DNA of 64,000 bases from Ascochyta rabiei (lineage: Eukaryota; Ascomycota; Dothideomycetes; Pleosporales; Didymellaceae): NCBI RefSeq assembly GCF_004011695.2, contig NC_082419.1:1-64000 (forward strand). Direction: 5' to 3'. Every line of letters begins with the position of its first letter. Position 1 is the stretch's first letter. A program made the position numbers and the translations under genes. The notes beneath the pieces were generated by a model that did no database searches, had not been told where the DNA came from, and worked only from the letters and a program-made list of their open reading frames with translations. Of the stretch, positions 25,344 to 55,361 are shown one piece after another.

Positions 25344-25746
25344 GGCAAATAGCATACTATAATTTTTTATTCTGTGCTATGCAGTAAGTGTGTTACTTTC
25401 TTGTGTTGGTGTTTACAGAGTTGTTCTGTTGTAGTGATGCGGCGGGGCCTGGTCCTCCGCGCACTAGCCTAACCCTGACCAACCCCAACTACAAGCACCA
25501 ACCCCAACACTACCAACCAAGTGGACAATAATGCTGGGGGTTGCATGGATAACAGAGTTGAGTGCTGCGAGACTGTTGTCTACGTTTTAGCTTGAACAGA
25601 CTTGAAAATGGAATTCCAATGTACAACTGAATAGTATTCCAGCGTACGTTGTGACTGAAAATACGCTAGTGTCCTGTAGCTGTTGTTACTAACAAAACCA
25701 AAGCTATAACTCTAGTGAAGGTACACTGCAACTACCCATTTGGGAT
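25344..25746. other. Companion 3' flank, shared with module C
   Basis: It matches 33,274-33,680 base for base apart from transitions (for example 'aattttttattctgtgct' in both). The match ends at about 25,746, which marks the inner edge of the duplicated module. No gene is seen. Confidence 0.6.
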
Positions 25747-25952
25747 AGATGCCTATTAAGATTGACAACGCCTGTTCGGTGATCCTTGCATACTAGCACG
25801 CCGTATTCCTCTAAGAAACAGAGAATGGCATCGCAATTTTCAAGCGACACCTGAGCACCGTTTTTGCGACCGTGTTGGCTGCGTTGTTTGTTATTGTTGT
25901 TGTTACTGCGCTGTTGCAGAGCTGTCGTGTGGTTTTGCTGGGCCTGATCCAT
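25747..25952 (-). pseudogene. N-terminal fragment of another OrsD-type gene
   Basis: From an ATG at 25952 the minus strand encodes a Gln/Asn-rich leader, then ENCDAILCFLEEYGVLVCKD and 'NLNRHLS'. This is the start of an OrsD zinc-finger domain (C-x-H pattern with hydrophobic spacing), as at the front of TLH proteins. It runs into the edge of module B at about 25,746 and stops, so only the first 65-70 residues remain. Its leader differs from TLH1-4, so it came from a different family member. It is truncated by the module junction. Confidence 0.55.
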
Positions 25953-26345: not shown

Positions 26346-26650
26346 ACTTAGGTGGGGCAACTACTTAGGTTGACGCACTACTTAGGGGAACCACTTAGGG
26401 AACTACTTAGGTTGTAGGTCTTCTTATTGGCTTCTGTGTCCTTCTACATGCTGTTATCTGCTTAACCTAAATACAGCAAACCCTAACCCTATCTTAACTT
26501 GCGTCCAGGCCCGACCGCAACTCCACTACCCTGACTTCCGTCCCAGCCTGAACCTAACTCGGCTGCACCGCTTCTATAAATCGTAAGCGGAAATTCTTTC
26601 ATTTGCTACTACTGCATCTACTGCGTCTACTCAGCTAACAACTGCGTAAT
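26346..26650. other. TLH3 downstream flank
   Basis: It has CTACTTAGG repeats, a telomere-like AAACCCTAACCCTA at about 26,477, and sequence nearly identical to 18,380-18,720. No gene is seen. Confidence 0.5.
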
Positions 26651-29600
26651 CTAACAAAATTCCTTAACTAAATTGTTGCTCTCCACGTTGTCCAGCAGCT
26701 GCTTCTTCCCCAAATATTCGATTAACATCCTACCTGGTCCTGCATCGTCCACCCTAAGCTCCGCTAATTAGACCTGCTATTAGGCATTTGCCTCTGTGTA
26801 ACCAAATACTATGCCTATTAACCCTGCGCTTAATACCCCAGTGTACTAACAAGTTCTGTCCTCTACTTGTTAATATCGCCCCTCCCCGTTCAGTTCCTAG
26901 CTATTGCAAATCTCCTGCGGCACACCACTGCACAGGAAACAGCCTAAAAACATGTTAAACCAAACTTGATTATCCATCCTCTGTACTATCTCTTTTGCTT
27001 TTTTACTTTCTGCCCTCTAACACTGCTATATGTTGTGTCCGCTCTGCGTGTTGCCCGCTCCCTTGCATATCCCGCATCAATTCGCCTACCACACTAACTG
27101 CCTGCGCACCCACTCCATATTGGCAAACTCTTGCTGTTGATGCTCCGTCAACGTCTGCCACGGCCCCCGACGCGCCTGCTCCTGCTGCCGAAACACCCGC
27201 TGCACCTCTTCTTGCTCGGCTTTAACAACGTCCATCTCGTCCCAATCGTTGTTCTCTGGCTCGCTCTCTTCTTCTGTTTCTTCCTCTACCACCTCCTCCA
27301 GCTGCCCGTCTATCCCTCGACACACGTCGCACATCTCCTTGTTGTCCTCCTCTCTACACCCTGCTCGATCCTTCCTCCCATCTAAATACCCGTCTAACAC
27401 TTCCCTCCTGCAGCCAACCGCCCCGCTCTCGCCACCTTCCACATACTCCCTCACCATCTGCCGCTTAGCTTCTGTCCTGTTGTTGTTGGTGCGTTGTTTC
27501 CTATCCTAAACAATCAAAACCGCCTCGCTTCGCAACCTGTCCTGGCCTGCCCTGCCACTCTCTTGTGCGTAATCTAACATAGTAAACAGCTAATTAATGT
27601 GAATAATGCACCGTACATCCGGTATGTCCACGCCTATCCCTAACGCGCTCGTTGCTACAATCACGTGCTGCTTGCCTGCCATAAAGTCCGCTAACATAGT
27701 TAGCTTGCCTATGGCATCTGCGTGATACGCGTGACAATCTAATTGCTCTGCTATTACCTTTACCTTTAGCTTCAAGTTACTGTACACAATAAGCTTACCT
27801 GTCCTGTACTTCTACATCTTCTGCCGCACCGTCTTAATAACCATCAACTCAACGTCCTTCTTCTTTGCGGACTGGCTGATCTAGATAGTCTAATACGCCA
27901 CGTTTGTCCTAGTAGTTAGTTGTCTAAATATCTTGACCTGCTTCCGCTTGTAATGCATTCGTCGATACAGCTCGTCTTCTTCTGTCAGCAGCAACGTTGC
28001 TGTTAACAGCACCATCTGCGTCTCAGCTGCTGCCAGCCTGCCAAGCTATTGCATCTGCTTGCGGAATGTGTATTAACGGTTCAACACAATGTAACACTTG
28101 TTAATCACAATACGGTCCAGCTGCCGCGTCGCTCGCAGCCAGTTCAAAAACGTCGCAAACGCTTCTCCTACTGCTGACTTAGGCGTTATAAACACAATGG
28201 CTGCTGCGTTAGGCAGGCAGCGACTCTGCCACTCGGCACACAATATCCCCAGCTCCTTGCATCGCCGCATTATGTCACCACGCAGCAAAACCAACGGCAC
28301 AACAACAACTGTTGTTCTGCCTTGCTCTGCCTACGCTGGCAACATAAACAACATGCTCTTGCCTGCGCCAGTTAGCATCACGGCCACGACAGGGCTCTCG
28401 CCGGCAATAATCGCCTTAATGGCCTCCTTCTGCACGCCTCTGAACTTGGCTTTCTTGCCCTTTATTTGCTTGAGTTGCGCTGCCAGGTCTATCTTCCTCA
28501 GCCGCTCCAGCCTCTCGATCCTTGCCTCGTCGGCCTCGCTCTCGAACGGCGCCCGCTTGCGCTTCTTCACGTCTGCTGATGCGTCTACAGCCGACTAAAA
28601 ACCCAAAAACCAGTGCCAATCAGTGCTTGAGTTGCGGAACAGCTGCCTTCTGTTAGCTGTGACACCTGCCATCTCTATAATGCCGCGTGCGTACACTATA
28701 CCCGCTACGTGCAACGTGTGTCTAGACTGCTTGTCTTAAATAATGGCTGCCATGTTCTCCTCCTTCCACTCCTCGTTTTCCTCGCCTTCCTTGGCGGCGA
28801 ACGCTGTTAAGCCGCGCAAAAATCGCTAGCTGATGCTAATGGCGATCTCACAGTACGCTGCAATCGTCAACTCTTGTTTGAGCCCGATTCAACTCTCGCG
28901 CTTCAACGTCTCCCGCACACGCTCTGAAGTCCATTTGCGTCCGTTCAGGTCGGCGGGCCACAAGTGGGATAAAATCGCCTCCTTCTCCCACACCATTGCC
29001 TCCAACTGCTGCTGGAACGGCAGCACCAACCATACGTACCACACCAGCAGCTCACCTACCTTACGTGGCAAGTACCAATAGATGATCTTAACGTCGCCGC
29101 TGACGGCGTACCCCTTGTGGTATTGTGTAACAAACACAACTATGCCGTCCTTAATAAATATGTTGCGGTGCCTGCCCTTGATCGTGTTGCTGTGTTGGAC
29201 GCTTAATATCTCAGTCGCCTGCGCGGGTTGTCCTGCCGTCATGTGCATGAGCGCGAGCAGCTTCTCCCTGAACGCAACCACACAGTCTATGTACCGCTCC
29301 ACTTCATTCCTGTCAATCCTGGAACGGGTGGCTGGCTTGATGAACCGCTCCCGCATCGTAGCGTCTTGCCCCACTCGTTCGAACAACCACCTCTCTCTAT
29401 CTACGGGCATGCGGGTGCGCTGGTCTTTTAAAAAGTTCCACCCAGGTCAATCGTCGGTCAGGTTGTCGCGCAGCTGCTCCCACGGAATCTGGGGGACTTG
29501 ATCTGCCGTCTGCCCGTTGCAAAACAGCAGCTCCTTAACCAGCATCTGCTTGTTCTCTGCTTGCATCCCGTGCACTATGCTGCAGAACTAGGCTATAGTG

Positions 29601-31309
29601 AAGTGCACGTTCTTGTACAGCAGCTCGTCCCTACCTATCCACTCAACGTTCCCTTGCGCGGTAGTGTTAAAATGCACCTTCAGCCTGTACGTACGCAAGT
29701 CGAGCATCTACTACATTAGGCTGTAGCTGCCTCGTACCATGAACCTGTCCATCATCTGCTACACAAACTCTAAGCAGCCTTTTGGTCAACGCAGCCTAGG
29801 GTTACTGCTGCCGCTGTCGCTCCCCCCGTACGCGCTGTTGTTGTCGAACACCTCCTCTTTAAACAGCTCAGACAGCTCAAGTGCGTGTTATACAACCATG
29901 AAACGGGTAATTTTAATCACTAACGACAATATCGGCAGGTACAGCTCAGCGTCCTTCCAGCCGTCCTCTTTGACGCCGAGCACAGCCAACGCACACACTA
30001 ACGCGCAGTTATACTCCTTGCGGCAGATGCGCTAGTTAAGCAGCGCAATGCAAAACATTAAGCACGCTTTCTTAATCAGCGTCAGCTTTGCGTGCTTGGG
30101 CTCGTTCTCAGGCTCGTTCTCGGGCTTGTTGTCGCACTCGGACGGGTCCTGCTCGTCGTCGAGTTCATCAATCATCATCTCGTCCTCCTCCTCCTCTTCC
30201 TCCTTGTCCTCATCCTGGTCCTCGTCCGCTACCTCCATCTCTGCCCCGCCTACGTCTCTCTCTGCCTGCTCGATCAATGCCTCCCACGCCTCGCGCTGCT
30301 GCTGTGTGAAGCGGTACTTAGGGCTGTTCCAACGGTGCTCCCTCTGCGTCTGTGCAAAAAACATCAGTATCTGCTTCTATAGACGTGACTGCTCTTTAAT
30401 CAACTTCTTGTCTATGTACGCCTGCAGCAGCGTGTACCTAGTCTAATGCTTCTCTGTACAAATAGCCTCTATACGCACAAATATGCCTGTCCGCTTAATA
30501 ACAGATGTCTGGCTCACGCAGGCCAGTCCATCCATCACGCTCCAAATTGCAGCCTTAACAGGCTCTTTATCTTTCTCCAGGTCTATGTTAGGCTCCTTAA
30601 CGCTTGCCAGCAATTCTAGATGATCCAGTTTGTTTAAGTACGGCAGCCACCCAGTCCGCTCCAGCCATAGGGCCGCCTCGTCCTTCTCCCTGTCTTCGAT
30701 TGTTGTCTTCGTCTAGTTCTTGACATTAGCCCACGTCTTGGCCATCTCCTCGCCTACCCGCGCCCACGCCGCCTCGCCCTCAACGGGGACGGGCTGCGGA
30801 CCGCTGTCTGGGTTGTGACAAACCTTAAAGTACTGTAATCCGTGCTAGCTGCTGAAAAGTCGCTGGCAGTGTACGCGCTTGCAGCCATCTTCAAGCTAGG
30901 CCTGTAACGCCTTTGCCTAGGTTCGGCTGGGGCGTCTATATTTCTTTCTAGCTGACCACCTATATGTCGTACGCCAATGTTCTTTTAGCGTCTTTAGGCT
31001 GCAGAACACTAGTTAGCATGTCTCTGGTTTGAGTTGACACAGCAGCCCGTCGTCGAATACGGGCAGCTGGGGGATTGCCTGCACGCTGTTGCTGGGTATC
31101 TCTAACTCTGTGGGGTACTGTAGCAAGTCTGCCCACTGACGTACGGCTTCTCCAACCGCTTTAGCGTTTTTAAGTGACTTCTTGTGCTGTTTATGTAAGT
31201 GGCTCTTGATCTAATCTGGCTATACAGCGTATCGGCACGCTCTGCACACCGCGACCTGGTACTCAGCCAAGTGCTCAAAACACGGATTCTTGACTTCTTC
31301 TGCCGACAT
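26651..31309 (-). pseudogene. Telomere-linked RecQ helicase copy 3, RIP-decayed
   Basis: From ATG 31309 to TAG 26651 there is one frame of 1,553 codons without frameshift, broken by stops only. It is a near-duplicate of copy 2, ten codons longer; part of the extra length is a repeated E-N-E-P acidic segment near 30,100. It shows the same OrsD front, acidic middle, motif I (LTGAGKS; copy 2 has PTGAGKS), VATSALGIGVDIPDV and zinc Cys cluster. The DEAD-box region is damaged (DECH has become NKCY), a further sign that it is not active. Relative to copy 2 the differences are mainly C-to-T and G-to-A. Confidence 0.87.
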
Positions 31310-31509
31310 GTTGGTGGCTTAGTTCTTGCTTGATCCAACGCTGCAGTTGCTGTTCTTATTGCTAGGTTATGTTAAGTTTCACACCCTAGCCTCTGCGTCA
31401 GCTCATGATGTACAGACCAATCTCCGTTCAGGCTGTTACCCTGGTCCAGGGGCTCAGCACAACACGACTGCTTCTTCTTTCCCCTTATCTTTGACGTTAA
31501 CAAACAAAC
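31310..31509. promoter_or_regulatory. Divergent promoter TLH3/companion 3
   Basis: 200 bp between start codons, aligned to 23,350-23,552, with the same AACAAACA leader before the companion start. Confidence 0.5.
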
Positions 31510-33273
31510 ATGTCGCTATCTAATCTGCCGTAGATCTCCGCGCTGGAAGATGCCGCCAAGCAATTCAATGGCGGGCCTTGGAGCTTCCCCTTGGCCAGCG
31601 AGTCTAGCTTTGCCCACAGGCTCGCATACAACCTGCTGAACAAGGACTACTAAAAGCTGTTCTAGAGCAGGGCGACCGTCTTAAACTCGCAGCGTGATGC
31701 TCTACTCCGCCCGCACAGCGCAGGCTGGCTGGTTCTAGACAAGACGAGTGTCTGCAAGCCTGTCTTTGTTGCCTACTCTGTGCTGTCGGCGATATGGCTG
31801 TTAAGGGAGACGCTTGCTAAAAGCGCGTTACCTGCTGATACGTGGGCGCGGCTGGTCTCTGCAGCGCAGGACCTTGCCAACAGCGCGAGCGACAGCTTTC
31901 AAACAGAACCCCCTTCAGCGCAGCGGCCCCGCGACTCCCCACCGCGGTTAACAAAGCGCGCTGCTGCGTCGAGTTCGGCGCTGCTGTTGAAGCGTCTCCG
32001 GCTAGCCACCAAGCCTCCCAGCCTAACGACGCCGCAGCTGTCAAGGTTAAACAAGTCTGACGGGTTAGAGGAGCCTAAGCCTGAGGAGCCTGTCTGTGAA
32101 CAGATCAGCCAGGAGGAACCCGCCCAGATCACAACCATCACCAACAAAAATCGCCGTGCTGAGCGAGAGCGCGCCAAGAAGCTGGAGCTCATGCGAGCGC
32201 AGAAGAAGCAGGACCTTAGATTGGTACCGCCGCCTAAGTCGGCATCTTGTAGGGAACACGGTGCCTATGCCTCTATCTTGCGCCAGGACGAGCCGTTCAT
32301 TTTATAGATCCTTAAGCAGCTAGTAGACAATAATAACAACCTGTACAGCAGCGCCACAGCGCCTTACCTGACAGCTTCTGGCATACTTAACAAGGCCCGC
32401 TCCATTAGCAATGCTGCTTCCTAGGTCTTGGCTGCTGCCTTCCTGCAAAGCTGGCGTATGCAAGGATCGCCTTTTGCGCAGGAGCCTGGGGAAACCCGCC
32501 CGCCTGCTTCCTCCCGCAGCCGCTGGCAGCTGTCGCAGAAGAGCAGCGCCTTGACGGTGCTCCAGAGCGCGCTCGCCTCCGCCTGGAGCCTGTGCGATCG
32601 CTACGAGCAGGAGCTGGACATTATCCACATCAAGTACCACTGGGCTATGGCTTTCCTTGGCAAGGCCTACACCAAGAAGATCGACCAGATCCAGGCGCAG
32701 GACGCCGCAAGGCTGAACAACAAGGGCAATAACTAATACAGCAAGGGCAAGGTCAGCTCTAAGGCCATAGACGCCCTGCTGCTGTCTGTCACCGCTGCTT
32801 CAGGGCCTGAGCAGCGACAGCGGTTCAAGAGGCAGCTACACCAGGCGCTCCGCTGGTACAAAGCAGCCAAGCAGCTAGGCTGGGGCATGCTCTGCCTAAT
32901 GCCGCACAACATTATCTCCAACTTGTAGGTAGAGAACGATCTCTGCGTCCCCTTCTGGCACATCTGGCTTAAGCTAGTTATGAAGGTGAATCCGGAGGCC
33001 CACAAAGCAAGCATGGCCTTGGACGCCTGGCTGGGCTTGGAGGGCATCTCTGGCGGATCTATCAGCGAGAAGGCAACGCTGTCAATTAAGGCAAACATGC
33101 CTATGTCAGCGACACAGGTAGAGGAGATTAAAGACAGCGAGGTAGAGGACAGCAAAGGCGGCAGGGACGAAAATAACGTTAAGCCTGCGCCCGCCTAGAA
33201 GACAGCAAAAAGCCCTGCACCTGTCTGTCTAATGTGCTAACTTACTTTACTTAAGCTGTGTAAGCCTTTTTAA
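31510..33273 (+). pseudogene. TLH companion protein, copy 3, RIP-decayed
   Basis: ATG 31510 to TAA 33271-33273, one frame of 588 codons broken only by stops (TAG, TAA). It has the same order of segments as copy 2: DAAKQFNGG start, HSAGW, Pro/Ser linker, NRRAERERAKKLELM basic helix, 'LYSSA.APYLTAS', 'CDRYEQELDIIHIKY', 'GGSISEKATLSIKA', acidic EEIKDSEVED. The C-terminal QLTLIEL is decayed. It is divergent to TLH3. Confidence 0.7.
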
Positions 33274-33680
33274 GGCAAATAGCGTACTACAATTTTTTAT
33301 TCTGTGCTGTGTAGTAAGTGTGTTTACTTCTTGTGTTAGTGTTTACAGAGTTGTTCTGTTGTAGTGATGCGGCGCGGCCCTGGTCCTCTGCGCGCTAGCC
33401 TAACCCTAACTAACCCCAACTACAAGCACCAACCCCAACACTACCAACTAATAGGACAATAATGCTAGGGGTTGTATAGATAACAGAGTTAAGTGCTACA
33501 AAAGCGTTAGCTGCATCTCAGCTTGAACAGACTTGAAAATGGAATTCCAGTGTACAACTAAATAGTATTCCAGCGTACGTTGTGACTGAAAATACGCAAG
33601 TGTCCTGTAGCTGTTGTTACTAACAAACCTAAAGCTGTAACTCCAGTAAAGGTACACTGCAACTACCTATTTAGGATAGA
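33274..33680. other. Module C inner flank and junction
   Basis: It aligns with 25,344-25,746 up to about 33,680, then switches abruptly to AT-rich sequence. This is the inner breakpoint of the duplicated module. Confidence 0.6.
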
Positions 33681-34417: not shown

Positions 34418-34480
34418 ACGTACTCTACAGGTAAGCAGATCAAACGGGTGAGCAGATCACTCTGCCAAGACCACACCAAA
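34418..34480 (+). repeat. Left terminal inverted repeat
   Basis: 63 bp pairing with 36218-36280; five transition mismatches. Confidence 0.9.
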
Positions 34481-34498
34481 CCTCCACCTTACCACGCA

Positions 34499-36151
34499 AT
34501 GCCTCAACAACAACATTAATCTACGCCCTTAAGAGAAGCTGCTATACAGCTTGCGCTCTAGGCAATTAAACAAGACGCAATGCTTACTGTGTGACGCGCT
34601 GTAGCTATATATAACGCGCCTTACAGCACACTACACGCTTAATACACAGGACGACCTGCACAAGCTAATTGTACGCTAGTTCAACAGATTATAGACCAGA
34701 CTAAGGAGGACGTGATTGCTAAGTACATCCTTAAGCTAGATACACGAGGATTTGCCCCTTAGCTGGCTGCTGTAGCTGATATAGCCAATTCTTTGCGTGC
34801 TAAGCGCAATATAGGCCATGTTGGCATAAACTGGCCTAACACGTTTGTTAAGCGCCGCCCTGACCTTAAAGTAAGGTTCAATTGCAAGTACGACTACAAG
34901 AGAGCCCTCTGTGAGGATCTAGAGATTATTAGGGGCTGGTTTAGGCTTGTAGCGAATGTCAAAGCTAAGTATAGTATCTAGGACAATAACACATACAACT
35001 TTAATAAGACAGGCTTTATAATAGGCCAGATATTGACAGGAGCAGTTGTTACAGGCTTAGAGCGTTAAGGACAGCTAAAGGCAGTGCAGCAGGGCAATTG
35101 AGAGTGGACAACGGTCATACAGGGCATCAATGGCACAGGGTGGGCTATTCTACCCTTTATTATCTTTAAAGGCTGCAACCACCTCTCTGCCTGGTACAAA
35201 GAGGACAATCTGCCCTATAACTGGGTTATTGGAGTCTCTGAGAACAGATGGACTACCAACGAGCTTGGTCTAGACTGGTTAAAGCACTTTAATGCCTATA
35301 CAAAGACGCGCACCTAAGAAGTACACCAGCTGCTCCTTATTAACAGCCACAAGAGCCACAACTCCCTTAACTTCTAACAATACTGCAAGGAAGCAAAGAT
35401 TGTTACACTGTGTATGCCTCTACACTTATCTTACCTCTTACAACCACTAGATGTAGGTTGTTTTGCCCCTCTAAAGAAGGCATATAGGCGCTAAGCTAAG
35501 AATCTTATGTGCAACTATATTACTTATATTACTAAAACTAAGTTCCTACTATGCTTTATAGACGCCTATAAGGAGAAATTTACTTCTAGCAATATCTAAG
35601 GAGGCTTCTAAGGCGCTGGAATAGTCCCCCTTGACCCAGAACGGGTCATAATGGGTCTTGATGTCCGCCTACGTACCCCACCGCTACCTACTGTAGAAGA
35701 TGAGCCCTGGCAGTCCTAAACCCCAAGCACTACCCTGCAATTAGGGTCGCAATCAACGCTGGTTCGAGAGAGGATTTAAAGGCATGCAAGCAGCTTACCA
35801 ACTTTAATAGTTAAGGCCTTTAAAAAGCTTGCTAAAGGCGCAGCTATAGTAGCGCACAAGCTAGTGTTAGCTTAAAGGGAGATTACTAGGCTTCGAGCAG
35901 CAAATAAGGCTGCTATACGACGTAAATCGCATAAAAGAAAGCAATTACAGCAGGAGGGAGTCCTAACAGCTAAGGAAGGCCTTTAATTAACTACTCTAAC
36001 TAAGTTTGGGGCGCGTGGTAATAGTAAGAAGGCAAAGAAGCAAGTGCGCGCTAAAGGAGGGGAAGTAACCCAAAGACGCTGTACAAAGTGCTACAATGTT
36101 AGACATAACTTACGTATATGTAAGAAGGCTGTAGAAGATGTTTCTAAATAA
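34499..36151 (+). pseudogene. Fot1-like transposase with stop codons
   Basis: ATG 34499 to TAA 36149-36151 stays in one frame (551 codons) with many TAA/TAG stops. The longest open part, 34,793-34,981, encodes the CENP-B-type helix-turn-helix region ('VGINWPNTFVKRRPDL'). The DDE part follows ('NKTGF', 'LLINSHKSHNS' where active families have D for N, 'LLQPLDVGCFAPLKKAY'). A C-terminal CTKC-x4-H-x4-C knuckle is seen. Stops and the D-to-N change fit RIP; the protein is dead. Confidence 0.85.
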
Positions 36152-36217
36152 TATTATGTACTGCACTACTGTATACAAGGCTAAAGTAGGCTAATGCGAG
36201 CTATAATAGGGTAGAAA

Positions 36218-36280
36218 TTTAGTGTAGTCTTGGCAGAGTGATCCGCTCACCCGTTTGATCCGCTTACCTGTGGAGTACGT
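36218..36280 (-). repeat. Right terminal inverted repeat
   Basis: Reverse complement of the left repeat, ending AGTACGT before the TA target copy. Confidence 0.9.
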
Positions 36281-36782
36281 TATACTTAGTTTATACTTAC
36301 TTTCTATTCTTTATTTACTATACTTAGCTTATACTTACTAGTTTTATCTCTAAAGTAAAGAGACATCTCTTATTATAAGTAGAATAGAAAGCTTTTACTC
36401 TTACTTTTCTAGTACTATATAAGTAACTTCTTTTTTTACTATATAGAAAGAATTATAAGATAGTACTATAAAGTAAGAAAAGGGAGTAGTATTAACTAGT
36501 AGAAAAATACTAAGATAAAGAGAGTAGAGATCTAGTAGTAGTAAGGTAGATATGCTATAGAGTAGCTTTTCTACCTACTTTACTAAAGTTAATAGCTAGT
36601 AGCTACTCTTCTTCTGCTTAAAAAGAAGTAGAGAGTATAGATTATAGAGTAGAGTATAGAGTATATATTAATAAAGCTAACTACTAGAATAGTATTCCCT
36701 TCTAAAGAGAATAGAGAAGATAAAATACATATATATATTTTACTATTTAGAAGCTACTATAGTAGAGGGAAAAGTAGAGCTT

Positions 36783-39700
36783 TTAAGTATAGAAGATAGA
36801 TTTTAAGCTTTCTAAAGTGGTTTCTTCTATACTAGTAGCTAGATTGCTAGATACTACGCTAGTAGAACTAGTAGTAGATTTACTCTCTACTTCTTTTATA
36901 TCTTTTTCTAGGTCTAGTAGTGTAACTTCTAGTAGAATCTTATAAAGGAAAAGAACCTTCTTAGTATCTACTTCTACTACTTTACTTAGTAGCTCTACTA
37001 TTATAAAGTCTTCTTTAGTAGTATAGCTAGTATCTTTTAAATAGTCTTCTTTAAGCTTAGATAGTGTTTCTAAGCTAGAAATAGGGATATCTCTCTTAAT
37101 TAGTTCTTGTAGAAATACTATATAGTTAACTATTATATCTCTATATAAGCAAGTAGCTTTACTCTTAGAGTAGCAGATAAACTTAGGTAAATAGCAATAG
37201 TAGTATACTAAGTTAGGTGGTATAATACCTCTATCATTAATAGGTGTTTTTATAACTTTAAAGATAGATCTTACTCTATTCTCTAAGCTACTTTTATAGT
37301 TAGAGCAATCCTCTAAAGAGTGTGTGCTATAGCTAGTATACTTATATCTAAAGAAGCAGTTAATACAAAATTTAGTAGTAAAATCTTCTATTTTTTCTAT
37401 TATTTTAACTTTTAAGGTCTCTACTAGAATAGAGTTGCTAGTTAGGCTTTCTTTAGCTTTTTCTAGACTTTTACTTCTTTTTAAACAACTAATACACTTA
37501 GCTACTTCTAGAGAGCAAGTTAGCTCTTGCTTATCTTCTAGATATTCTTCTAGTATTCTTCTATTACAAGTTCTATCTAGTAGAAACTCTATTAACTTGT
37601 TATTATCTATTACTTTAAACTCTTCTAACGTAGTTATACTACTAGCGTTAATAGAAGTCTCTACTAATCTATCTTTTATAGTACTAGGATAAATTAGAAA
37701 AGCTTTGCCTTCTTTTAACAATCTAGCTACTCTACCTATACCTTGTATAGTATTCATAAAGCTATTATAGATATAGATAAAGAGAATACTCTTAATAAAA
37801 GGATAATCTATCCCTACTATTAAAGCGCTAGTAGCTACTATGCTAGTATAAGTACTATTATTACTATCTAGAAATAAGCTTAGATTTTTCTCTAGTAGCA
37901 CTTTTTCTTCTAGATCTATAGTGCTATAGTAGTAAGGTATAGCAAACGCCTTAGCTACCCTTCTAGCTTCTTCTTTAGTTCTAGTATAGAGAATTATCTT
38001 CTCTTTACTTTTTAAAGACTTTACTTCTTCTATTAGAATACTTCTAGCTATCTCTATAGGCTTATTACTTTCTATAGGTATGTAGCTTATATTATCTCTA
38101 GTAGTAGACTCTTTTATAGTATAGGGCTTATAGATACTAAACTTTAACTCTAATAGATTAAGTAAGCTACTAGGTAGCGTAGCGCTTATAAATACTAGAT
38201 TAAACTCTAGATTAAGAATCTTATTAATACTTTCTAGCCTAGGCCTAAAGCTTTCTTCTAGTAGCAGTAAGTGTGCTTCTTCTAAGAAGATAGTAGTAGA
38301 TACTCTATCTATCTTAAGACTATACAAGTAGCTTAAAAAGCTAACCTCTAGTAATAAATCTATAGATATAAACAGTAGATTTGCTTTTATCTCTTTAGTA
38401 TCTAGCGTATCTAGATTACTAGCATCTATTAGCATACTATTAAGCTTTAAGCTTCTAGATCTATTATAAAGGTCTTTTAGTAAGCTTATTCTAGGTACTA
38501 CTACTATATACTTTCTATTAGAATATAAGTAGCTAGGTAGAAAGAAGAGATTGGATTTTCCTCCTCCTGTTTTAGATATATAGGTTAAGAAAGGAGTAGA
38601 ATCTATTATCTCTTTAATAGCTTCTTCTTGCCTAGGGCTTTTAAAGTCTTCTATTTCTATATTTATACTTTTATATAGCTCTTTTAAGCTCTCTAGTAAA
38701 GTCTTTCTTCTACTACTTATAGCTAAGTTAGTTAAGCTTCTAAGTTTAATATTCTCTCTAATAATCTTTTCTCTCTCTTCTAGACTTATACTATTACTAC
38801 TACTAGTTTTAGTAATAATACCTTCTAAATAGTTTAGCTTTTTAAGCTTAGCGCTTATAGGGCTAGTTAAGTCTATACTAGACTTTCTTTTACTAGGACT
38901 ACTAGGTAGAATAGGTAAAGTGCTAGTTAGACTAGTCTTTTCTTTTTCTATATCTCTATTTATAATAGCTTCTATTTTCTTACTATAGCTACTAGAAGGT
39001 ATTTCTCTAGTAGAAGAGCTTTTAGAAAAGATATCTTCTTCTTCTTCTTCTTCTTCTTCTTCTTCTTCTTCTTCTTCTTCTTCTTCTTCTTCTTCTTCTT
39101 CTTCTTCTTCTTCTTTATTAAAGTCTAAGCTAGGTAGAATACTACTACTAAGACTTATAGTAGTGTTTCTATTTAATAGCGCTTCTCTTTCTCTATTAGT
39201 AGTAAGATCTTTTATATAGTTAATATTACTACTAAGAATACTAGAGCTAGTTCTAAAAGAAGGCCTAGCTAGATATAGTTTATCTTCTAGTAGTACCTCT
39301 TTACTTTTACTAGAGTTAGCATCTTCTTTTTCTTTACTAGTGCTACTGCTACTATTCTCTTCTATAGTAGAGGTAACTAGATTCTCTTTATCTCTATTAA
39401 GTTCTTCTAGAAGAAGACTATCTTCTATATCTAGACTATAGTTACTACTAGAGTCTTCTTCTAGAATAGCATCTTCTTCTATAGCTAAGTTACTATTACT
39501 ACTAAGATTATCTTCTATAGATCTATTCTCTTTAGTAGTAGAAGCACTAGCTCTAGAGCTACTACTACTTCTAAAAGTACTAGTAGGTATTCTTTCACTT
39601 ATTCTATTATCCTTACTACTTTTACTAGTGCTAGTAGTATAGACTAGAGGCTTTTTTACTTCTTTACTTCTACTAGAAGCTAGGCTTTTACTCTTATAGT

Positions 39701-42700
39701 TTTCTACTAGGTTTAGAATAGTACTATACTTATTCTCTTCTTCTACACTATTTTTCTTACTAGCACTAGTAGTAGCTATAGAAGTACTAGGTATATAATT
39801 AGCACTAGTAAAGCTATTACTAGAGTCTAAGCTATTGCTTCTACTATTCCTTCTACTATTATTCTTACTAGTAGAAGTAGCCTCTAGTCTAGTAGTAAAG
39901 ATAGGATATAGACTAGAAGTACCTTCTTTAGTGCTTTTATTAATCTTATATAGACTTCTTCTATTTCTTATCCTATAAACTCTAGTACTATTATCTTCTT
40001 CTAAGCTAGCGTTATCTGCTAAGCTACTAGTAGTACTATTACTAGAGATATCTATTATATCTTCTTCTTTACTAGGTAGCGTATCTACTCTAGTATAATG
40101 CTTCTTATTAATAGGCTTTTTTAGTATAACTACTTTAGGGCTACTAGTAGTAAGAGCCTCTTCTTTTCTAGAACTAGAGCTAGAGCTAGAGCTAGAACTA
40201 GAGCTATTAATTATAAACTTCTTTCTCTTACTTATAGTAGTAGGAGGTCTGCTCTTCTCTCTACTAGAGCTACTACTAGAGCTACTACTACTACTTTCTC
40301 TTCTTATAGTATCTTTACTAGAAGTATTATTATATACTTTATCTAATATATCCTGTGTACTAGTACTATAGTTAAAGTTATCTTTTAAAGTAGTATGGTT
40401 ATTAAAGTCTATATTACTATAGCTTACCTCCTCTTCTCTATTACTACTAGAAGAAGGTGCTTTACTAGAGCTTATAATGTTTATATCTTCTATTAACTCT
40501 TCTATACTCTTAGCTTCTTCTCTTCTAATAGGCTTTACGCTAGGTAGAATAGAGTCTTCTAGCCTAGTAGCTATAGCGTTAAAGACTACTAGCTTCTTAT
40601 CTATAGTTCTACTACTAAGCTCTAGAAAGTTAAAGATTCTAGTAGTAAAATCTATAGACTTTTGCTCTAGGCTACTAGTTTTACTAGCTAGGATATTACT
40701 ATCTCTAGCATAGTTACCTAGTGCTACTTTAGTAGAGTGATTAAACAGTATATCTTCTATATTATTCTCTTCCTCCTCTTCTTCTAGTATACCTTCTAGA
40801 TCTATATTTAATCTATTAATAATAATATACTTTATAGCTTGTCTATAAGTAGAGATATATAGCTTTATACCTAGAAACTCTAGGCTTTTAATACTAAGTA
40901 GATTAGAGATATCTTTACTAGTAATAAGCTTATTATTAACTTCTAGTAAATAAGGACTAGCTTTCTTTATATTAAACACCTTAAAGTTTAGTTAGTTATA
41001 GAAAGGTATGCCTAAAGTTATATATACTTTTAGTAGGTAGCTAAACTTAGGGCTAAAGAACCTAACTATGTTATTATCTCTATTAGTAATACTATTAGAC
41101 TTGCTATAGCTAGTCTCTACTTTTATTAGCTTAGTAATGCTATCTATATATAGGTTTCTAGAGCCTAGCTCTAGGCTATTAGTATACTTTAGTAACTCTA
41201 CCTCTGTGCCTCTAATAGGGCAAGCTGCTAGTAGATAGAAAGCTAGACCTAGTAGCTTAATAAACTCTTGCCTATCTTTTAGATATTTTCTTATATTATA
41301 GATATTAAAATCTATACTAGTGCTAGTAATGCTATTAATAAAGAACTTAGAGTAGATAGAGCTAGTATCTTCTAGTCTTTTAATTAGGTAGAAGCTATAG
41401 TCTTTTAGGTTATAGTCTCTATTGTTAGTACTATCTTCTAGAAAGCTATAGGTAGGACTAGTATCTACTACACTATCTTCTAGCTTGTTAAAGTCTAGAT
41501 CTAGATTACTAGGATTAAGATAAAGAATTCTAGAGAATAGAAACTCTTCTAAGGTATCTTCTATATAGACAAAGAACTTCTTAAGCTTCTTAATATCTAC
41601 TTCTAGACTATTATCTACTATAAAGAGATTGCTACTAATATCTCTTATTCTAGGCTTAGTTAGCGTGTTAGTAGCTATAGCTCTAGTATAAGCTCTTAAA
41701 GAGGTTAATTCTTCAAAGCTATTACTAGAGTTAAATGTTAGATTTCTACTATAGTAGTCTAGAAAGACCTCTTCTAAGCTAGTAGAATTACTACTAGTAG
41801 TTAACTTATTATATCTACTATTAACTATAGCTATAGAGAATAGCCTAAGAGAATAGATTAGATAAGAGCAATCTTGCTCTATGCTAATAGCTGCCTTAGT
41901 AACTCTTGTATTTAGATCTATACTTTTAATAGCTAGAAAACTAATAATAGCACTATTAAAGCTAGGGTATTCTTCTAGGTTATCTTGTGCTAGAGGCTGC
42001 TCTAGCAGCGTATCTACTATAGCTATTAAATACTCTTTACTTCTAGCAACTAGCGTAGTAAATAGAGTATCTAGTATACCATCTTCTAGGTTTTCTTTAC
42101 TAGCTTCTAGAAAGTCTTTTATATTCTCTACTATAGTAGCTACTAGCTCTTCTACTAGAGAGGGTAAAATAGGTTGCTTACTAGTAGTAGACTTATCTCT
42201 AGCTCTTTCTCTAATAACTCTATATAGATAGACTATAAATAGACTAAAATACTTATAGTACTTTCTTTTCACATCCTTACTAGAGAGTAGGCTAAAGTCT
42301 TTTAGATTCTTCTCTTTATTAGTAGCTAGTACCTCTGTTTGTAGCTGCTGCCTAAGCCTTCTATTTAGCTTCTCTACTAGAGGTTCTATAGAGTATAGAG
42401 TCTCTTCTACTAGCTTAAGTAGATTGTATTCTACTCTCTCTTCTGTAGTAGTGCTCTTCTTTATAGGAATAGTAACTAGCTTAAGTAAGCTATTGAGATT
42501 CTTATTATTAAGAAAGAGATAGAACTTAGTTTTACGTATAGTAGAAGGTATCTCTTTATTCTCTAATAAAGTAAAGCTTAGATTAGTAGCATTAGTAAAC
42601 GCTTCTAGCTCTTCTCTATAGCTATTAATAAGGCTGTTAGAAGTACTAAGAGTAGTAGTAGTAATAGTAGGCTCTATAGCGCTAGTAGTACTACTATTAT

Positions 42701-43196
42701 CTTTTATAATAAAGTAGTTTAATAAATCTTTCTTCTTAAATAGACTTTGTATCTTAATATTACTTTTATAGAAGGTCTTTTTACTACTAGTAAAAGGTAT
42801 TTCTTTCTCTTTTCTATGCTTTTCTAAGTGTAGGTATAAGCTTTTAGTAGTACTAAAGAGACTATTACACTCTTTAACTAGGTATAGATAACCTTCTTCT
42901 ATAAGCTTTAGTTCTTTAAAGAAATACTTATAGTTCTCTATAGAGTGTAGACTATTAATATTAGCTATAGAATAGTCTTTAATATCTTCTAAAAACCTTT
43001 TTACTTCTCTATCTTTAAAAGAAATTCTATGCTGCTTTATAAGATGCTGCTTAGTTATTTCTACTATATTAGTACTTTTATTACTATTAATACTAGTTAG
43101 GCAGCTACTTTTAGAGCAGAATAGAAGCCCTAGATCTTTAAAGTAAGATAAGTTATAGCCTAGCTCTATAGTAGGAGTATAGTTAGAGGTAGACAT
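36783..43196 (-). pseudogene. Divergent telomere-linked RecQ helicase (TLH4), one internal stop
   Basis: ATG 43196 to the final stop at 36783 is one frame of 2,138 codons with a single in-frame TAA at 40992-40994. The front half (734 residues) has OrsD-like fingers C27/C32/H51/H56 and C110/H123/H127 and an IRGTE motif. The second half (about 1,400 residues) opens with a long Ser/Thr/Glu-rich disordered part including a poly-Glu run. The RecQ core follows: TGGGKS (about 808), EEAH (904), ISATLP (935), VATSALIVGIDYP (1052), QGIGRVAR (1083). The zinc cluster is CNRR...C...CISC (1142-1169), then C-x2-C...H...C and a last Cys group. Both parts together contain no Trp and two internal Met. The TAA could be CAA hit by RIP. 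It may be a recent pseudogene, a readthrough gene, or a two-protein gene. Confidence 0.8.
39034..39115. repeat. TTC/GAA microsatellite
   Basis: About 27 TTC triplets, encoding the poly-Glu run of TLH4 on the minus strand. Length is a multiple of three within an open frame. Confidence 0.9.
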
Positions 43197-44020
43197 AGTA
43201 GTATACTTAGCTAGTTAAATAGAGTTCTTTTATAGTATTTCTATAGGTATATTAGTAGGCTTCTAGTAGAAGATGTAGCTAAGGGTAGAAATAGAGAATA
43301 CTTACTTTTATAGTATTTAGTAATAGATATAGAAGGTAGAGGTCTGTAGATAGAATAGTATAGTAAAGAGTAAAGTAGAGAGTAGAGTAGAGAAGGATAG
43401 TAAAGAGAAGAAAGAAGTGTTTATATAGATAGCTAGCTCTAGCTATTAGCAAGTCTAATTAGCGTTTAGTTACTAGAGAATTACCTTTATTCTTAAATCT
43501 ACTACTAGTAATTAAGAATTAAACAAAGAGGAATTAGTTAATTCTTCATTATTCTACTAGTACGTAGAAATAAATAAAAGAAGAATTAGTTAATTCTTAA
43601 TTACTGCTAGAATAATTAAGAATTAATTAAAGAAGAATTAGTTGATTCTTAATTATTCTACTAGTAATTAGGATTCAATAAATAAAGAATTAGTTAATTC
43701 TTAATTACTGCTAGAACAATTAAGAATTTAGTAAAGAAGAATTAGTTAACTCTTAATTATTCTACTACTAATTAAGGATTAAGTAAAGAAGAATTTATTA
43801 ATTGTTAATTTTAGTATAGTAAATAGAAGACTACTAGTTAAGACGTAATAGAAAAGAAGATAATATAAAAGTAGAGAAACTCTCTTTCTATTTTATACTA
43901 CTACACTACTATCTACTCTTCTATAACCCTAACTACTTATACTAAGGTACTAAGCAAAATACTAAAGGTAGGAATTCTATATACTACTATCTTCTAGAAG
44001 CTAACTTCTATCTTTTCTAG
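43197..44020. repeat. Upstream region of TLH4 with ATTAAGAATT repeats
   Basis: Between TLH4 and the next possible gene. From about 43,500 to 43,820 a loose tandem of 50-64 bp carries self-complementary AAGAATTAGTTAATTCTTAA cores, so each unit can fold. A telomere-like AACCCTAAC word is at about 43,925. It is the TLH4 promoter by position. Confidence 0.6.
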
Positions 44021-44747
44021 ATGTCTAGCATTAAGACGAGCTATAAGAATCTTAACTATAGTACTACTATAGCTAGAAGATTTCTTAAAGAAAATCTTAG
44101 CTCTTTAGCTTTAACTTCTACCTATCTACTAGGAAAGAATGTTTATAATATAAGAGACAAAGCTAGTAATAAGGTAGTAGGCTTTCTAGGCTACCTAGTT
44201 AGCTATAGCAAGCTACCTAGCTTAGTAAACTATATTTATAAGAAAGGTATAGTAGTATAATCTTATAGTAGAAGTATCTATGCTAATAGCAGACGCTAGG
44301 CTTAGAACTAGGCTATACTAGGTTATTTATTATTATAGTAAACTCTTTTAAGAAAGAAGAATACTATATTACCTACTATAATACTAGAGTAGAAGATAAA
44401 GTTACTCTAGTTACTAGTAAAGAGTTCTTAGAAGAGTACGTTAGTAATAGACTCTATACTATTCTAGAGCTAGATAATAGGTATGTCTCTATGCTAGTAT
44501 AGTAACTATAGTAGCTAATAAGTCTAGCCCTTCCTTCTTTAGTAGAGAAACACTAGAGTACCTAGAGAATTTAAAAGAGAAAGAAGAAGAAGAAGAAGAG
44601 AAAGAAGAAGAAGAAGAAGAGAAAGAAGAAGAAGAAGAAGAGAAAGAAGAAGAAGAAGAAGAGAAAGAAGAAAGTACTACTAGTGTTACTAGTTCTACTA
44701 GCTCTACTAGTATAGAAGAAGAAGAAGATCTTTTTATAGACTATTAA
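44021..44747 (+). CDS. Possible gene with acidic tail, divergent to TLH4
   Basis: Not recognised. An ATG at 44021 opens 79 codons ending in YKKGIVV. A second open stretch (about 44,290-44,503) reads 'TLGLELGYTRLF' and 'KEFLEEYVSNRL'. A third (about 44,507-44,747) ends with a Glu/Lys-rich repeat encoded by GAAGAAGAGAAA units and finishes EEEEDLFIDY. They are in different frames, so short introns or frameshifts are needed; I see a candidate intron between the first two but no convincing one for the last. Composition is CA/TG-poor like TLH4. The acidic end and divergent position recall the TLH companions, but no sequence match is seen. Confidence 0.3.
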
Positions 44748-45630
44748 ATGCTATAGCCCTATTTTAAGTAGAAGTCCTTTAAGGTTAAAATTAGTTCTAG
44801 AATCTTATCTACTTTTTAAAAAGAATAAACTAAGAAAAAAGAAATGTCTCTAGCTATAGTATAGGTATATAAATAGAAATAAGATAGAATAAAGATTAGT
44901 TAATGCTATTACCTTTATAAAAGGATTGTTAGTTCTTCTCTTTAGTTACTGTATAAATAGAAAGTTACTAGCTATTGCTAGTAAAGAATAGTCTTAGAAG
45001 AATGCTTTTCTCTATATTATACTTTGTCTTTATCTATTAAAAGAGCCTCTAGCTATATACTAGATAGAAAAGATAGAGAATTCTCTTTTCCTATTTCTAT
45101 ATCTTAAGGGTACTTATTACTATTAGCTATATAGAGAAATAGAAAGAATTAACGCTAGTTATTCTTATAGATACTAAGTATAAGAAGTAAGAGTTATTCT
45201 CTCTAGATATTCTCCCCAGGTATTCTCTCTAGTTATTCTATCTACTTATTATCTATAAGGGATAGAAAGCTAGTTCTTCTCTCTAATAATCTCTACTAGA
45301 TATTACTTTCTAGAACTACTATCTCTACTACCCTAGGATAGGCTATAACAGCTAGAAAAGAAGAAAGAAAAGAAGAAGAAAAAGAAGAAAAGAATAAAAA
45401 ACTAACTACTTATTCTAAAGCGCTAGTTGTTCTTTTAGATAGGTTAGTAGAGTATAATACCTAGTAAATAGCTAGTAGATAGCTATTAGCTATAGTGTTT
45501 ATAGCTATAGAGATAGTAGAATAACTAAAAGATAGTTATAGATACTAATAAAATGTTATTAACTATTTTATTATCTTCTAAATAAGCTACTAGAAGAGAC
45601 TAGATCTAGTAGAGATATAGTAAAAGAAGC
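44748..45630. other. AT-rich sequence without clear genes
   Basis: TA-rich sequence with stops in all frames and short CTAGATATT / AGTTATTCT repeats near 45,205-45,310. No gene is supported. Confidence 0.5.
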
Positions 45631-45639
45631 TAAAGCTTA

Positions 45640-45910
45640 AGAAATTTCTAGATATCCTAAATAAGTAGACATCTAGAAATTTCTAGACAACCTAAAGAAG
45701 TAGATATCTAGAAATTTCTAGATAACCTAAAAAAGCAGACATCTAGAAGTTTCTAGATAACCTAAAGGAGAAGATATCTAGAAATTTCTAGATATCCTAA
45801 AAAAAAAAAAGACATCTAGAAATTTTCTAGATACGTTACAATAGGCTAGAAATAGCAAGAAGAAAAGAAAAAAGAAAAAATTTCTAGATATCCTAAATTT
45901 CTAGATATCC
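45640..45910. repeat. Palindrome-bearing tandem repeat
   Basis: Five to six units of about 37-40 bp, each with the perfect or near-perfect palindrome ATCTAGAAATTTCTAGAT followed by a CCTAAA-type spacer; variants differ by single transitions. Confidence 0.85.
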
Positions 45911-54418: not shown

Positions 54419-54974
54419 ATGCGTCAGAGTGCATTGTCCGTGCGCCCACCTGGCAAGCACGACGATGTTGGAGAGACAAGGTGAAGGAAGGTGACGGGCG
54501 CAGAAGACGTCGAGTGCACGCGAGACGGCATGTTTGAACAGCTCCTTGGTTGGATTGGAGAAGAAGAGCACATGGCTGCAACTCACTGTGGTTCTGCGAG
54601 CGTTCCCCCCCTCAGGCTGCACTACCAGATGAGCTCGGAGCGCCTGTATTGGGGCTTGTCAGGGCAGAGAGCGTGCTGCTGTTCGAAGCAGGCCTGCTGC
54701 GTTTTCACGAAGCGGCTGATTGTCGCTATAGTGCAAGACAGGGCATTCCCGCAGTACGACACGCACCGGTGGACAGCGCAGCCGAGCCTCCAGGCAGGAT
54801 CTCCAGTGTGGCGCGGGGAAGCAAGTGTGGCGCGGGGAAGCAGGCCAGGTTGAGATGGGAGAGCATGAGACGTGCCTAGCGCCCGTTCACGCTCCTTGGT
54901 AGTGCCAGGGACCTAATTACTTCGAACTTCGTAGAGGGCTAGCGCCGAGGACCCCGGCTTCACCACGACCCGCA

Positions 54975-55115
54975 CGACACGCCGACCGCCGTCACCTCGA
55001 CCGCCGTCACCTCGACTGCCGTCACCTCGACCGCCGTTACCTCGACCGCCGTCACCTCGACCGCCGTCACCTCGACCGCCGTCACCTCGACCGCCGTCAC
55101 CTCCACGACCCCCTC
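54975..55115. repeat. 15-bp minisatellite upstream of ING gene
   Basis: Roughly nine units of GTCACCTCGACCGCC with single changes; followed by GCGCCCATC 9-mers at about 55,143-55,168. Long Gly/Arg frames on the minus strand are produced by this array. Confidence 0.85.
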
Positions 55116-55340
55116 GACCTCGACCGTCACGTCGGCCGTCATCGCGCCCATCGCGCCCATCGCGCCCACCTCCCTCCACGCCCTCCACGCCCACCTCCAC
55201 CGACGGCCTCCCCCACCGCCGCCGCCCTCGCCCTCGCCGCCGCTCCCTGCCGCCCCGATTCCCCCCTCGGACAGCATCGACGCGTGGCTGGAGTGTCTGA
55301 CGCGCGCATCAGCCGCCTCTCAGCCCGGACACTCCGCGCG

Positions 55341-55361
55341 ATGCACCATGGCCGACGCTGA
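55341..55361 (+). promoter_or_regulatory. Short uORF overlapping the ING start codon
   Basis: An ATG 7 nt before the main ATG opens six codons and ends in TGA at 55359-55361, inside the main coding frame. If ribosomes use it, they must re-initiate backwards or leaky-scan, lowering translation. Its effect is inference. Confidence 0.45.

What the first reader, a model, noticed from the sequence alone, without database searches (positions are those of the whole stretch)
36783..43196. A RecQ helicase that survived RIP: 2,138-codon frame almost free of CA and TG
TLH4 lies in a block where CA/TG are nearly gone. The protein has no Trp and two internal Met, and very few His, Gln and Cys. Those that remain are concentrated at functional sites: the OrsD finger ligands, the RecQ zinc cluster (four Cys) and the two Cys-rich tails. 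One finger Cys is replaced by Tyr (consistent with TGC to TAC). Motifs I, III, V and VI are readable. This pattern fits selection keeping essential codons while RIP removed all others.
Basis: partly seen in the sequence, partly recalled or inferred. Interest (0 to 1): 0.82.

Follow-up and report, generated by a model that had tools for sequence, protein, structure and literature searches.

The report
RIP-saturated subtelomeric helicase gene family
A multicopy helicase gene near the chromosome ends of a fungus has almost no targets left for the fungus's own repeat-mutating defence, so its protein nearly does without several amino acids, and distant relatives show the same restricted protein alphabet.

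Summary
The window is the telomeric end of contig C15 of Ascochyta rabiei. The frame is on the minus strand and is not fully open: an in-frame TAA (40992-40994) cuts it into 734 and 1402 codons. The composition claim holds: (CA+TG)/(AC+GT) is 0.21 in the frame, against 0.58-0.63 in AT-rich DNA beside three other copies. Copies or pieces lie on eight more contigs; all nine point 3' to a contig end. One of eight long copies (C2) is open over 2125 codons, where about 271 stops are expected by chance. TpG across codon borders falls tenfold, as a mutation process predicts. W, M, H, Q, C and G are scarce, yet 30 of 32 columns where homologues conserve C/H/Q/G/P are kept. Eight of 17 homologues (29-61% identity) share the reduced alphabet, so it is old. 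C2 against a diverged copy shows codon selection (N/S 0.53 of expectation). Among near-identical copies CpA sites still change more often than CpT (odds ratio 5.6) and conserved Cys codons are hit. Best reading: recurrent RIP plus purifying selection made a RIP-hardened telomere-linked helicase; most copies in this strain, the window's included, are decaying. A recombinase-like middle domain is likely.

The parts
36783..43196 (-). TLH4 frame, window copy: ATG at 43196, stop at 36783-36785, in-frame TAA at 40992-40994 (codon 735)
40992..40994 (-). in-frame TAA that interrupts the window copy; absent from the seven other long copies; not a CpA-to-TpA type of change
42816..43118 (-). OrsD-like double zinc finger (C27, C32, H51, H56; residue 105 Tyr in this copy, C110, H123)
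   Evidence: columns aligned with homologues, four of six scanned reach Pfam's OrsD cut-off; the window half itself gave no OrsD hit
40611..41699 (-). tyrosine-recombinase-like domain (codons 500-862): invariant R662, K699, R785, Y829 in C2 numbering; the in-frame stop lies inside it
   Evidence: alignments A2 and A4, AF2 model of the P0015 piece, structural matches
37485..38630 (-). RecQ helicase core with four-Cys zinc cluster (1877, 1894, 1901, 1904 in window numbering)
   Evidence: Pfam DEAD 1.1e-12 and Helicase_C 5.8e-7; RecQ structures
37149..37367 (-). two Cys-rich C-terminal clusters; in this copy the conserved Cys 1986 (C2 numbering) is Tyr
39034..39116 (-). poly-Glu coding tract, variable in length between copies at codon 1361
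36281..45833 (.). main body of the CA/TG-poor subtelomeric repeat unit; aligned blocks 98-99.5% identical in C2, C7, C9, C17 and C19
33677..34417 (.). far (telomere-side) end of the same unit, separated from the body by an inserted transposon
   Evidence: C2 and C7 downstream sequence matches here at about 99%
34418..36280 (.). 1.86-kb element with terminal inverted repeats inserted in the unit; 74% identical to the insertion inside the C9 copy
45773..45796 (.). 24-bp perfect palindrome GATATCTAGAAATTTCTAGATATC at the 5' end of the unit
   Evidence: 12 places in the genome
43457..43820 (.). tandem 52-bp repeats upstream of the start codon

Best explanation
TLH4 is a telomere-linked RecQ-type helicase gene (OrsD-like zinc fingers, tyrosine-recombinase-like middle domain, RecQ core with zinc clusters) carried on a subtelomeric repeat unit of about 10 kb. 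Because the unit is multicopy in a fungus with RIP, its lineage was exposed to C-to-T mutation at CpA and CpG again and again (inferred), while purifying selection among copies discarded stops and harmful changes (shown between C2 and C13 and between C2 and C11). The outcome is a coding sequence with very few RIP targets: Trp, Met, His, Gln, Cys and Gly are scarce, conserved Cys and His ligands are kept, synonymous codons are mostly those without CA/TG/CG, and codons that one RIP hit could turn into a stop are about ten times rarer than in ordinary TLH frames. Homologues share the amino-acid state, so it is an old property of a clade and should make the gene tolerant of further RIP (inferred). 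In this strain the copies are mostly decaying, and remaining CpA sites, several of them conserved Cys codons, are still being hit.
For: Targets: (CA+TG)/(AC+GT) 0.22 in the C2 frame, 0.19 and 0.12 in non-coding parts of the unit, 0.58-0.63 in AT-rich flanks of C2, C11 and C13. Mutation rather than protein choice: across codon borders TG 21 against 202, CA 34 against 120, CG 10 against 51 after codon shuffling. Frame kept: no stop in 2125 codons of C2 against 271 expected. Selection: C2 against C13 N/S 0.53 of expectation, 0 of 300 simulations as low, stops 3 against 12.9; C2 against C11 also 0.53, 0 of 300, stops 3 against 8.4. Key residues: 30 of 32 conserved columns kept; Cys mean conservation 0.85 against 0.30 for unrestricted residues. 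Homologues: C+H+Q+W+M+G is 2.5-5.7% in 8 of 17 (P0001-P0007, P0015), 6.6-7.6% in 3 (P0008-P0010) and 13.5-19.0% in 6 (P0011-P0013, P0016-P0018), against 20.1-22.8% in six ordinary A. rabiei TLH frames. Hardening: 8.5 possible nonsense sites by CpA or CpG hits per 1000 codons, against 85-101 in five ordinary TLH frames and 57-62 in three other frames of the window. Continuing process: minor-T sites at CpA 8 of 161, at CpT 20 of 2175, odds ratio 5.6, p = 0.0004; six TG-to-TA sites polarised by C11 and C13, four of them conserved Cys codons.
Against: No expression data. 1 of 8 long copies is fully open, and it has lost a finger Cys. N/S among recent copies is near neutral (0.65-1.07, none significant), so function in this strain may be fading. 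The C2-C13 and C2-C11 tests compare codons column by column although C13 has stops and a frameshift and C11 two stops. Differences between near-identical copies have Ts/Tv near 1, so RIP-type change is a minority of recent mutation. The A. rabiei genome paper reports many CpT and relatively few CpA changes in transposons (passages of PMC4835772), while TLH4 keeps CpT. The surviving Gly, Pro and Gln are mostly not at conserved columns, and in 3 of 11 alignment rows the restricted residues are on average no better conserved than the rest. DNA of the homologues was not seen; their CpA loss is inferred from amino acids. RIP was not separated from deamination of methylated cytosine. The tree suffers from unequal composition.
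Confidence: 0.74

Rival explanations
1. Dead repeat: the unit is an ordinary RIP-inactivated subtelomeric repeat, and the long frames are leftovers of a recently functional gene.
For: 7 of 8 long copies are broken; recent N/S is near neutral; the window copy has a stop and two lost Cys.
Against: No stop in 2125 codons of C2 against 271 expected; N/S 0.53 between C2 and C13; 30 of 32 conserved columns kept; homologues with the same alphabet and frames of 1406-1731 residues.
Confidence: 0.12
2. The same mutational filter, but by spontaneous deamination of methylated cytosine at CpA/CpG in subtelomeric heterochromatin rather than by premeiotic RIP.
For: CpG is depleted with CpA, and the ordinary TLH duplicate pair in the window also has C/T differences at both (0.236 of CpA and 0.275 of CpG sites against 0.099 of CpT and 0.072 of CpC).
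Against: The composition steps sharply at the borders of the repeat unit and is stronger than in adjacent AT-rich DNA, which suits a process that follows repeats. A. rabiei is reported to have RIP gene orthologues (passages of PMC4835772).
Confidence: 0.2
3. Plain AT mutation bias or origin in an AT-rich genome (organelle, virus, other host).
For: GC is 0.30.
Against: 83% of C stand before T; against expectation from base composition Met is 2 for 45, Trp 0 for 18, His 10 for 57. An ordinary TLH of the same window has the same order of domains (OrsD, then the block with the RGTE motif, then helicase).
Confidence: 0.03

Closest known systems
Fungal telomere-linked helicases (TLH) with OrsD/DUF3505, as described at chromosome ends of Colletotrichum higginsianum (PMC5576322, passages)
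   Same: RecQ-type helicase, OrsD-type fingers in homologues, subtelomeric place, one orientation relative to the telomere, many copies (that DUF3505 is the former name of OrsD is recalled)
   Different: CA/TG/CG-depleted coding sequence with reduced amino-acid alphabet; six ordinary TLH frames of the same genome have 20.1-22.8% of C/H/Q/W/M/G
RIP-affected telomere-associated RecQ repeat X26 of Stagonospora nodorum (PMC3017866, passages)
   Same: Subtelomeric RecQ repeat under RIP in a related fungus (kinship recalled); the authors count 26 putative functional RecQ copies and call it unclear how function is kept in some and not in others
   Different: X26 was classed as a RecQ helicase after in-silico RIP reversal; here a full-length frame persists at near-complete loss of targets, with homologues in the same amino-acid state
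Podospora NWD gene family under RIP (PMC1805685, passages)
   Same: RIP acting on a functional multigene family; CpA nearly gone around its pseudogenes
   Different: There the heavily RIPed members are pseudogenes; here a heavily depleted frame shows codon selection
Tyrosine recombinases (XerH, XerA, Cre)
   Same: Predicted fold and an R-K-R-Y set in the middle domain
   Different: No match by sequence; the HxxR histidine (motif recalled) is absent; activity unknown

Membership tests
Telomere-linked RecQ helicase (TLH) | RecQ-type DEAD and helicase C domains | tested here: met
   Pfam DEAD 1.1e-12 and Helicase_C 5.8e-7, both over cut-off; RecQ 1oyw E 1.5e-10
Telomere-linked RecQ helicase (TLH) | subtelomeric place and fixed orientation | tested here: met
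   9 of 9 copies or pieces of TLH4 lie within about 60 kb of a contig end with the 3' side towards it (places, contig lengths)
Telomere-linked RecQ helicase (TLH) | N-terminal OrsD (DUF3505) zinc-finger domain | tested here: inconclusive
   No OrsD hit in the window half; over Pfam's cut-off in 4 of 6 homologues scanned and below it in the other 2; ligand columns shared
RecQ family | four-Cys RecQ zinc cluster | tested here: met
   C1865, C1882, C1889, C1892 (C2 numbering) are Cys in 9 of 9 homologues with letters there
RIP-affected DNA | loss of CpA/TpG with gain of TpA | tested here: met
   TpA/ApT 2.31 and (CA+TG)/(AC+GT) 0.21 in the window frame
RIP-affected DNA | C-to-T changes between copies concentrated at CpA | tested here: met
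   CpA 8 of 161 against CpT 20 of 2175, p = 0.0004; but Ts/Tv is near 1 overall
RIP-affected DNA | dependence on RID/DIM-2 and on the sexual cycle | not testable with these tools
   needs crosses and mutants
Tyrosine recombinase | catalytic-domain fold | tested here: inconclusive
Tyrosine recombinase | R-K-HxxR-H/W-Y residues (recalled) | tested here: inconclusive
   R173, K210, R296 and Y340 of the P0015 piece are invariant in 8 of 8 rows; the HxxR histidine is missing, the H/W place is H, R or Y, and stretch 316-352 has low confidence

The most novel reading that the evidence does not exclude
A clade of subtelomeric tyrosine-recombinase-helicase elements has lived under RIP for so long that it became RIP-hardened: its coding sequence has nearly exhausted CpA/CpG, works with roughly fourteen common amino acids plus a few irreplaceable ones, and so can stay multicopy at chromosome ends of RIP-competent fungi. 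RIP would then be a long-term sculptor of a conserved protein family rather than only an eraser.
Probability: 0.5. Interest if true: 0.87.

Novelty: new variant of a known kind. Interest (0 to 1): 0.74.

Why it matters
RIP is usually seen as fatal to multicopy genes. Here a 2100-codon gene appears to have passed through near-total loss of RIP targets with its frame, helicase motifs and most metal ligands intact in one copy, and homologues share the amino-acid outcome. It gives a natural experiment on which residues of a RecQ-type helicase cannot be given up, a possible answer to how TLH genes stay multicopy under RIP (a question left open in PMC3017866), and a warning that gene finders may miss such genes: the one named A. 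rabiei database protein found, P0014, is an 'uncharacterized protein' of 792 residues covering 36% of the frame.

Tried and rejected
First reading (Ts/Tv near 1) as 'no RIP on recent copies' was replaced, which show an excess at CpA. An early idea that CpC is a target, so that Pro would be depleted, was dropped: CC across codon borders is 30 against 31.5 expected and Pro is 53 against 45. Pfam and PDB profile searches with the middle domain found no recombinase by sequence. A scan of viral contigs found no relative: 135 stretches matched a pattern, none was confirmed. The last homologue search, with P0014, returned P0014 alone. The three homologue searches scored only the roughly 8000 candidates sharing most words, so the family is probably larger. 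Foldseek alone was weak (best E 0.075).

The first tree had 13 rows because the motif pattern missed seven; one search repeats it with 20. Rows left out: P0011-P0013 from alignment A2 as ordinary RecQ-type proteins; P0003, P0009, P0014 and P0015 from the tree, and P0013 from the tree by hand. In one search only columns with at least six homologues were scored (1422 of 2125 residues of C2). C16 was found late to hold the 5' half of the unit at 99.4% up to the transposon; it was not in the eight-copy alignment.

No paper on a RIP-saturated yet conserved helicase showed in the listings (one search listed none), nor one tying tyrosine recombinases to fungal TLH genes; most subscription journals are not in that library.
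Full report
WHERE IT IS. The window is G000:C15:1-64000 and begins with CCCTAA telomere repeats. A database protein matching the N-terminal part at 99% is named from Ascochyta rabiei and lies on a contig of 1,944,960 bases, the length of contig C9 of this genome, so the genome is taken to be A. rabiei (Dothideomycetes, Pleosporales). The frame of the finding lies on the minus strand, 36,783-43,196. It is not fully open: an in-frame TAA at 40992-40994 (codon 735) divides it into 734 and 1402 codons.

COPIES. A whole-genome search with the 1402-residue part found copies or pieces of the same gene on contigs C2, C7, C9, C11, C13, C16, C17 and C19 besides C15; 9 of 9 lie within about 60 kb of a contig end and point 3' towards it. 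Six long copies (C2, C7, C9, C15, C17, C19) have aligned blocks 98-99.5% identical over about 9.5 kb; C11 is at 96% and C13 at about 94% in their main blocks. C16 holds the 5' half at 99.4% and a further 319 bases. In the window the unit runs from 45833 to 36281 and, beyond an inserted 1.86-kb element with terminal inverted repeats (34418-36280), from 34417 to 33677. A 24-bp palindrome at its 5' end occurs at 12 places in the genome, on C1, C2, C7, C9, C15, C16, C17 and C19. One of eight long copies, C2, is fully open (2125 codons from the shared ATG). The others carry stops, frameshifts or, in C9, a 1.87-kb insertion of the transposon family seen in the window (74% identical).

COMPOSITION. 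In the window frame CA is 0.72%, TG 1.29% and CG 0.31% of dinucleotides; (CA+TG)/(AC+GT) is 0.21 and TpA/ApT 2.31. 83% of C stand before T, against 24% in 46-64 kb (both strands counted). The non-coding parts of the unit are as extreme (0.19 upstream in the window, 0.12 downstream in C2), whereas AT-rich DNA beside the C2, C11 and C13 copies has 0.58-0.63 and the GC-rich flank of C7 1.46. Other fetched 2.5-kb stretches with GC under 0.40 have 0.49-0.66, except two on C16 with 0.19 and 0.40, which overlap that contig's copy of the unit. The change is sharp at the unit's border. So the state belongs to the unit, not to the AT-rich neighbourhood.

MUTATION OR PROTEIN CHOICE? Across codon borders, where the protein matters little, TG is 21 against 202 expected after shuffling codons, CA 34 against 120, CG 10 against 51, GG 23 against 43 and CC 30 against 31.5. 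Codons follow: TCT 81 of 82 TCN serines, CCT 50 of 53 prolines, ACT 133 of 161 threonines, GCT 60 of 71 alanines, no TGG and no CGA. Against base composition, Trp is 0 for 18, Met 2 for 45, His 10 for 57, Gln 18 for 71, Cys 17 for 51 and Gly 21 for 60, while Pro is 53 for 45 (C2 copy).

SELECTION. A dinucleotide-Markov control (20 runs) expects 271 (s.d. 16) in-frame stops in 2125 codons; C2 has none, and its other five frames have 71 to 468. Between C2 and the diverged C13, nonsynonymous to synonymous changes are 0.53 of a context-matched expectation (0 of 300 simulations as low) and stops 3 against 12.9; C2 against C11 gives 0.53 (0 of 300) and stops 3 against 8.4. C13 and C11 carry stops and C13 a frameshift, so these tests speak of the history of the lineage, not of those copies now. 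Between C2 and the five near-identical copies the ratios are 0.65, 0.74, 0.85, 0.95 and 1.07, none significant. Of 32 columns in which at least 70% of six or more homologues carry C, H, Q, W, M, G or P, C2 keeps 30; lost are C105 (Tyr) and P416 (Ala). Seen from C2, 14 of 16 scorable Cys, 4 of 8 His, 3 of 19 Gly, 7 of 33 Pro, 2 of 12 Gln and 0 of 2 Met are at such columns. Mean conservation is 0.85 for Cys and 0.63 for His, 0.30 for unrestricted residues, and 0.25-0.36 for Gly, Pro, Gln and Met. So retention at functional sites is clear for Cys and partly for His; what is left of the others is mostly scatter around a few fixed places. In 11 of 11 alignment rows restricted residues are more often in columns conserved at 80% or more, but in 3 of 11 rows (P0003, P0008, P0010) their mean is not higher.

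HOMOLOGUES. One search found 13 proteins (P0001-P0013), P0015 (61% identity) and three ordinary RecQ-type proteins (P0016-P0018). P0001-P0003 are at 42-48% and P0004-P0007 at 29-32% identity. C+H+Q+W+M+G is 2.5-5.7% in 8 of these 17 (P0001-P0007, P0015), 6.6-7.6% in P0008-P0010 and 13.5-19.0% in the other 6; six ordinary A. rabiei TLH frames have 20.1-22.8%. The eight have one to three Met and at most one Trp each in 1406-1731 residues. All are from unnamed sources, and their DNA could not be read. In a tree of the helicase core, TLH4 with P0001, P0002 and P0004-P0007 form a clade (100/99), apart from the ordinary TLHs, but unequal composition may favour that join.

IS RIP STILL ACTING? Among the six near-identical copies, sites with C in most and T in a minority are 8 of 161 at CpA and 20 of 2175 at CpT (odds ratio 5.6, p = 0.0004). 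Sites with a minority C occur at the same rate at TpA and TpT (0.0104 each) and are explained by ordinary T-to-C change. Six TG-to-TA sites can be polarised because C11 and C13 both keep G; four are family-conserved Cys codons: C105 (C2, C15), C1935 (C19), C1986 (C7, C15, C19) and C2004 (C7, C9). Their distributions conflict, which needs repeated hits or exchange between chromosome ends. C17 alone of the eight long copies keeps all 31 conserved places checked, but it has two one-base deletions. The ordinary TLH duplicates of the window (18.5-25.7 against 26.5-33.7 kb) differ mainly by transitions (725 to 231), with 24% of CpA and 28% of CpG sites hit against 10% of CpT and 7% of CpC. The 2016 genome paper on A. 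rabiei reports RIP and RIP gene orthologues but, unlike here, many CpT and relatively few CpA changes in transposons (passages, PMC4835772).

HARDENING. Positions at which one CpA or CpG hit would make a stop number 8.5 per 1000 codons in C2, 85-101 in five ordinary TLH frames and 57-62 in three other frames of the window. That this matters for survival under RIP is inference.

MECHANISM. Shown: target loss, its match to the repeat unit, frame retention in one copy, codon selection between diverged copies, retained Cys ligands, shared alphabet, and a present excess of CpA hits. Inferred: that premeiotic RIP caused it over many sexual generations, that exchange and selection among chromosome ends kept working copies, and that the outcome is tolerance of RIP. 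Unknown: whether any copy is expressed, and what the protein does at telomeres.

PAPERS. Passages found by term were read in PMC3017866, PMC4835772, PMC5576322, PMC11893274, PMC12543289, PMC1805685, PMC7593156 and PMC12857005; no paper was read whole. PMC3017866 reports a RIP-affected subtelomeric RecQ repeat in S. nodorum and calls the way function is kept in some copies unclear. PMC7593156 reports dN/dS of 0.342 for a truncated U. maydis telomeric RecQ gene. PMC11893274 reports 22.5% AT-rich DNA and variants in telomeric helicase genes in A. rabiei.

Noticed in passing
window 1-3670, 12413-14798, 14800-15630: Three long stretches without a single G on the + strand (3670, 2386 and 831 bases), CT-rich with CCCTAA-like motifs; the first joins the telomere, the others are internal.
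   Followed up: partly
window 18553-25749 and 26484-33680: Tandem duplicate of an ordinary TLH block (83-87% identical), differing mostly by transitions at CpA and CpG.
   Followed up: partly
window 34418-36280; C9 copy at codon 762; C16: Transposon family with terminal inverted repeats beginning AACGTACYC, inserted at different places of the TLH4 unit in C15 and C9; C16 is interrupted at the same place as C9 by related sequence.
   Followed up: partly
window 45773-45796 and C1:16377-16400: 24-bp palindrome at the 5' end of TLH4 units, found at 12 genome places; C1 carries one although no TLH4 coding match was listed there. Its arms would suit a recombinase site (speculation).
   Followed up: partly
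window 28889-29446 and 8080-9180: Ordinary TLH genes share the recombinase-like block; one reads PGRGTE, another PAQATE, losing the first Arg.
   Followed up: partly
window 39034-39116: Poly-Glu coding run changes length between copies; in C19 a 133-base expansion shifts the frame.
   Followed up: no
window 54945-55169: 15-bp tandem repeats in a GC-rich frame near 54943-57744.
   Followed up: no
L010 and L044 (contig C11): The C11 copy looks mosaic: about 99% to the window copy in the 3' half, 83-88% near the start codon, as expected from exchange between chromosome ends.
   Followed up: no
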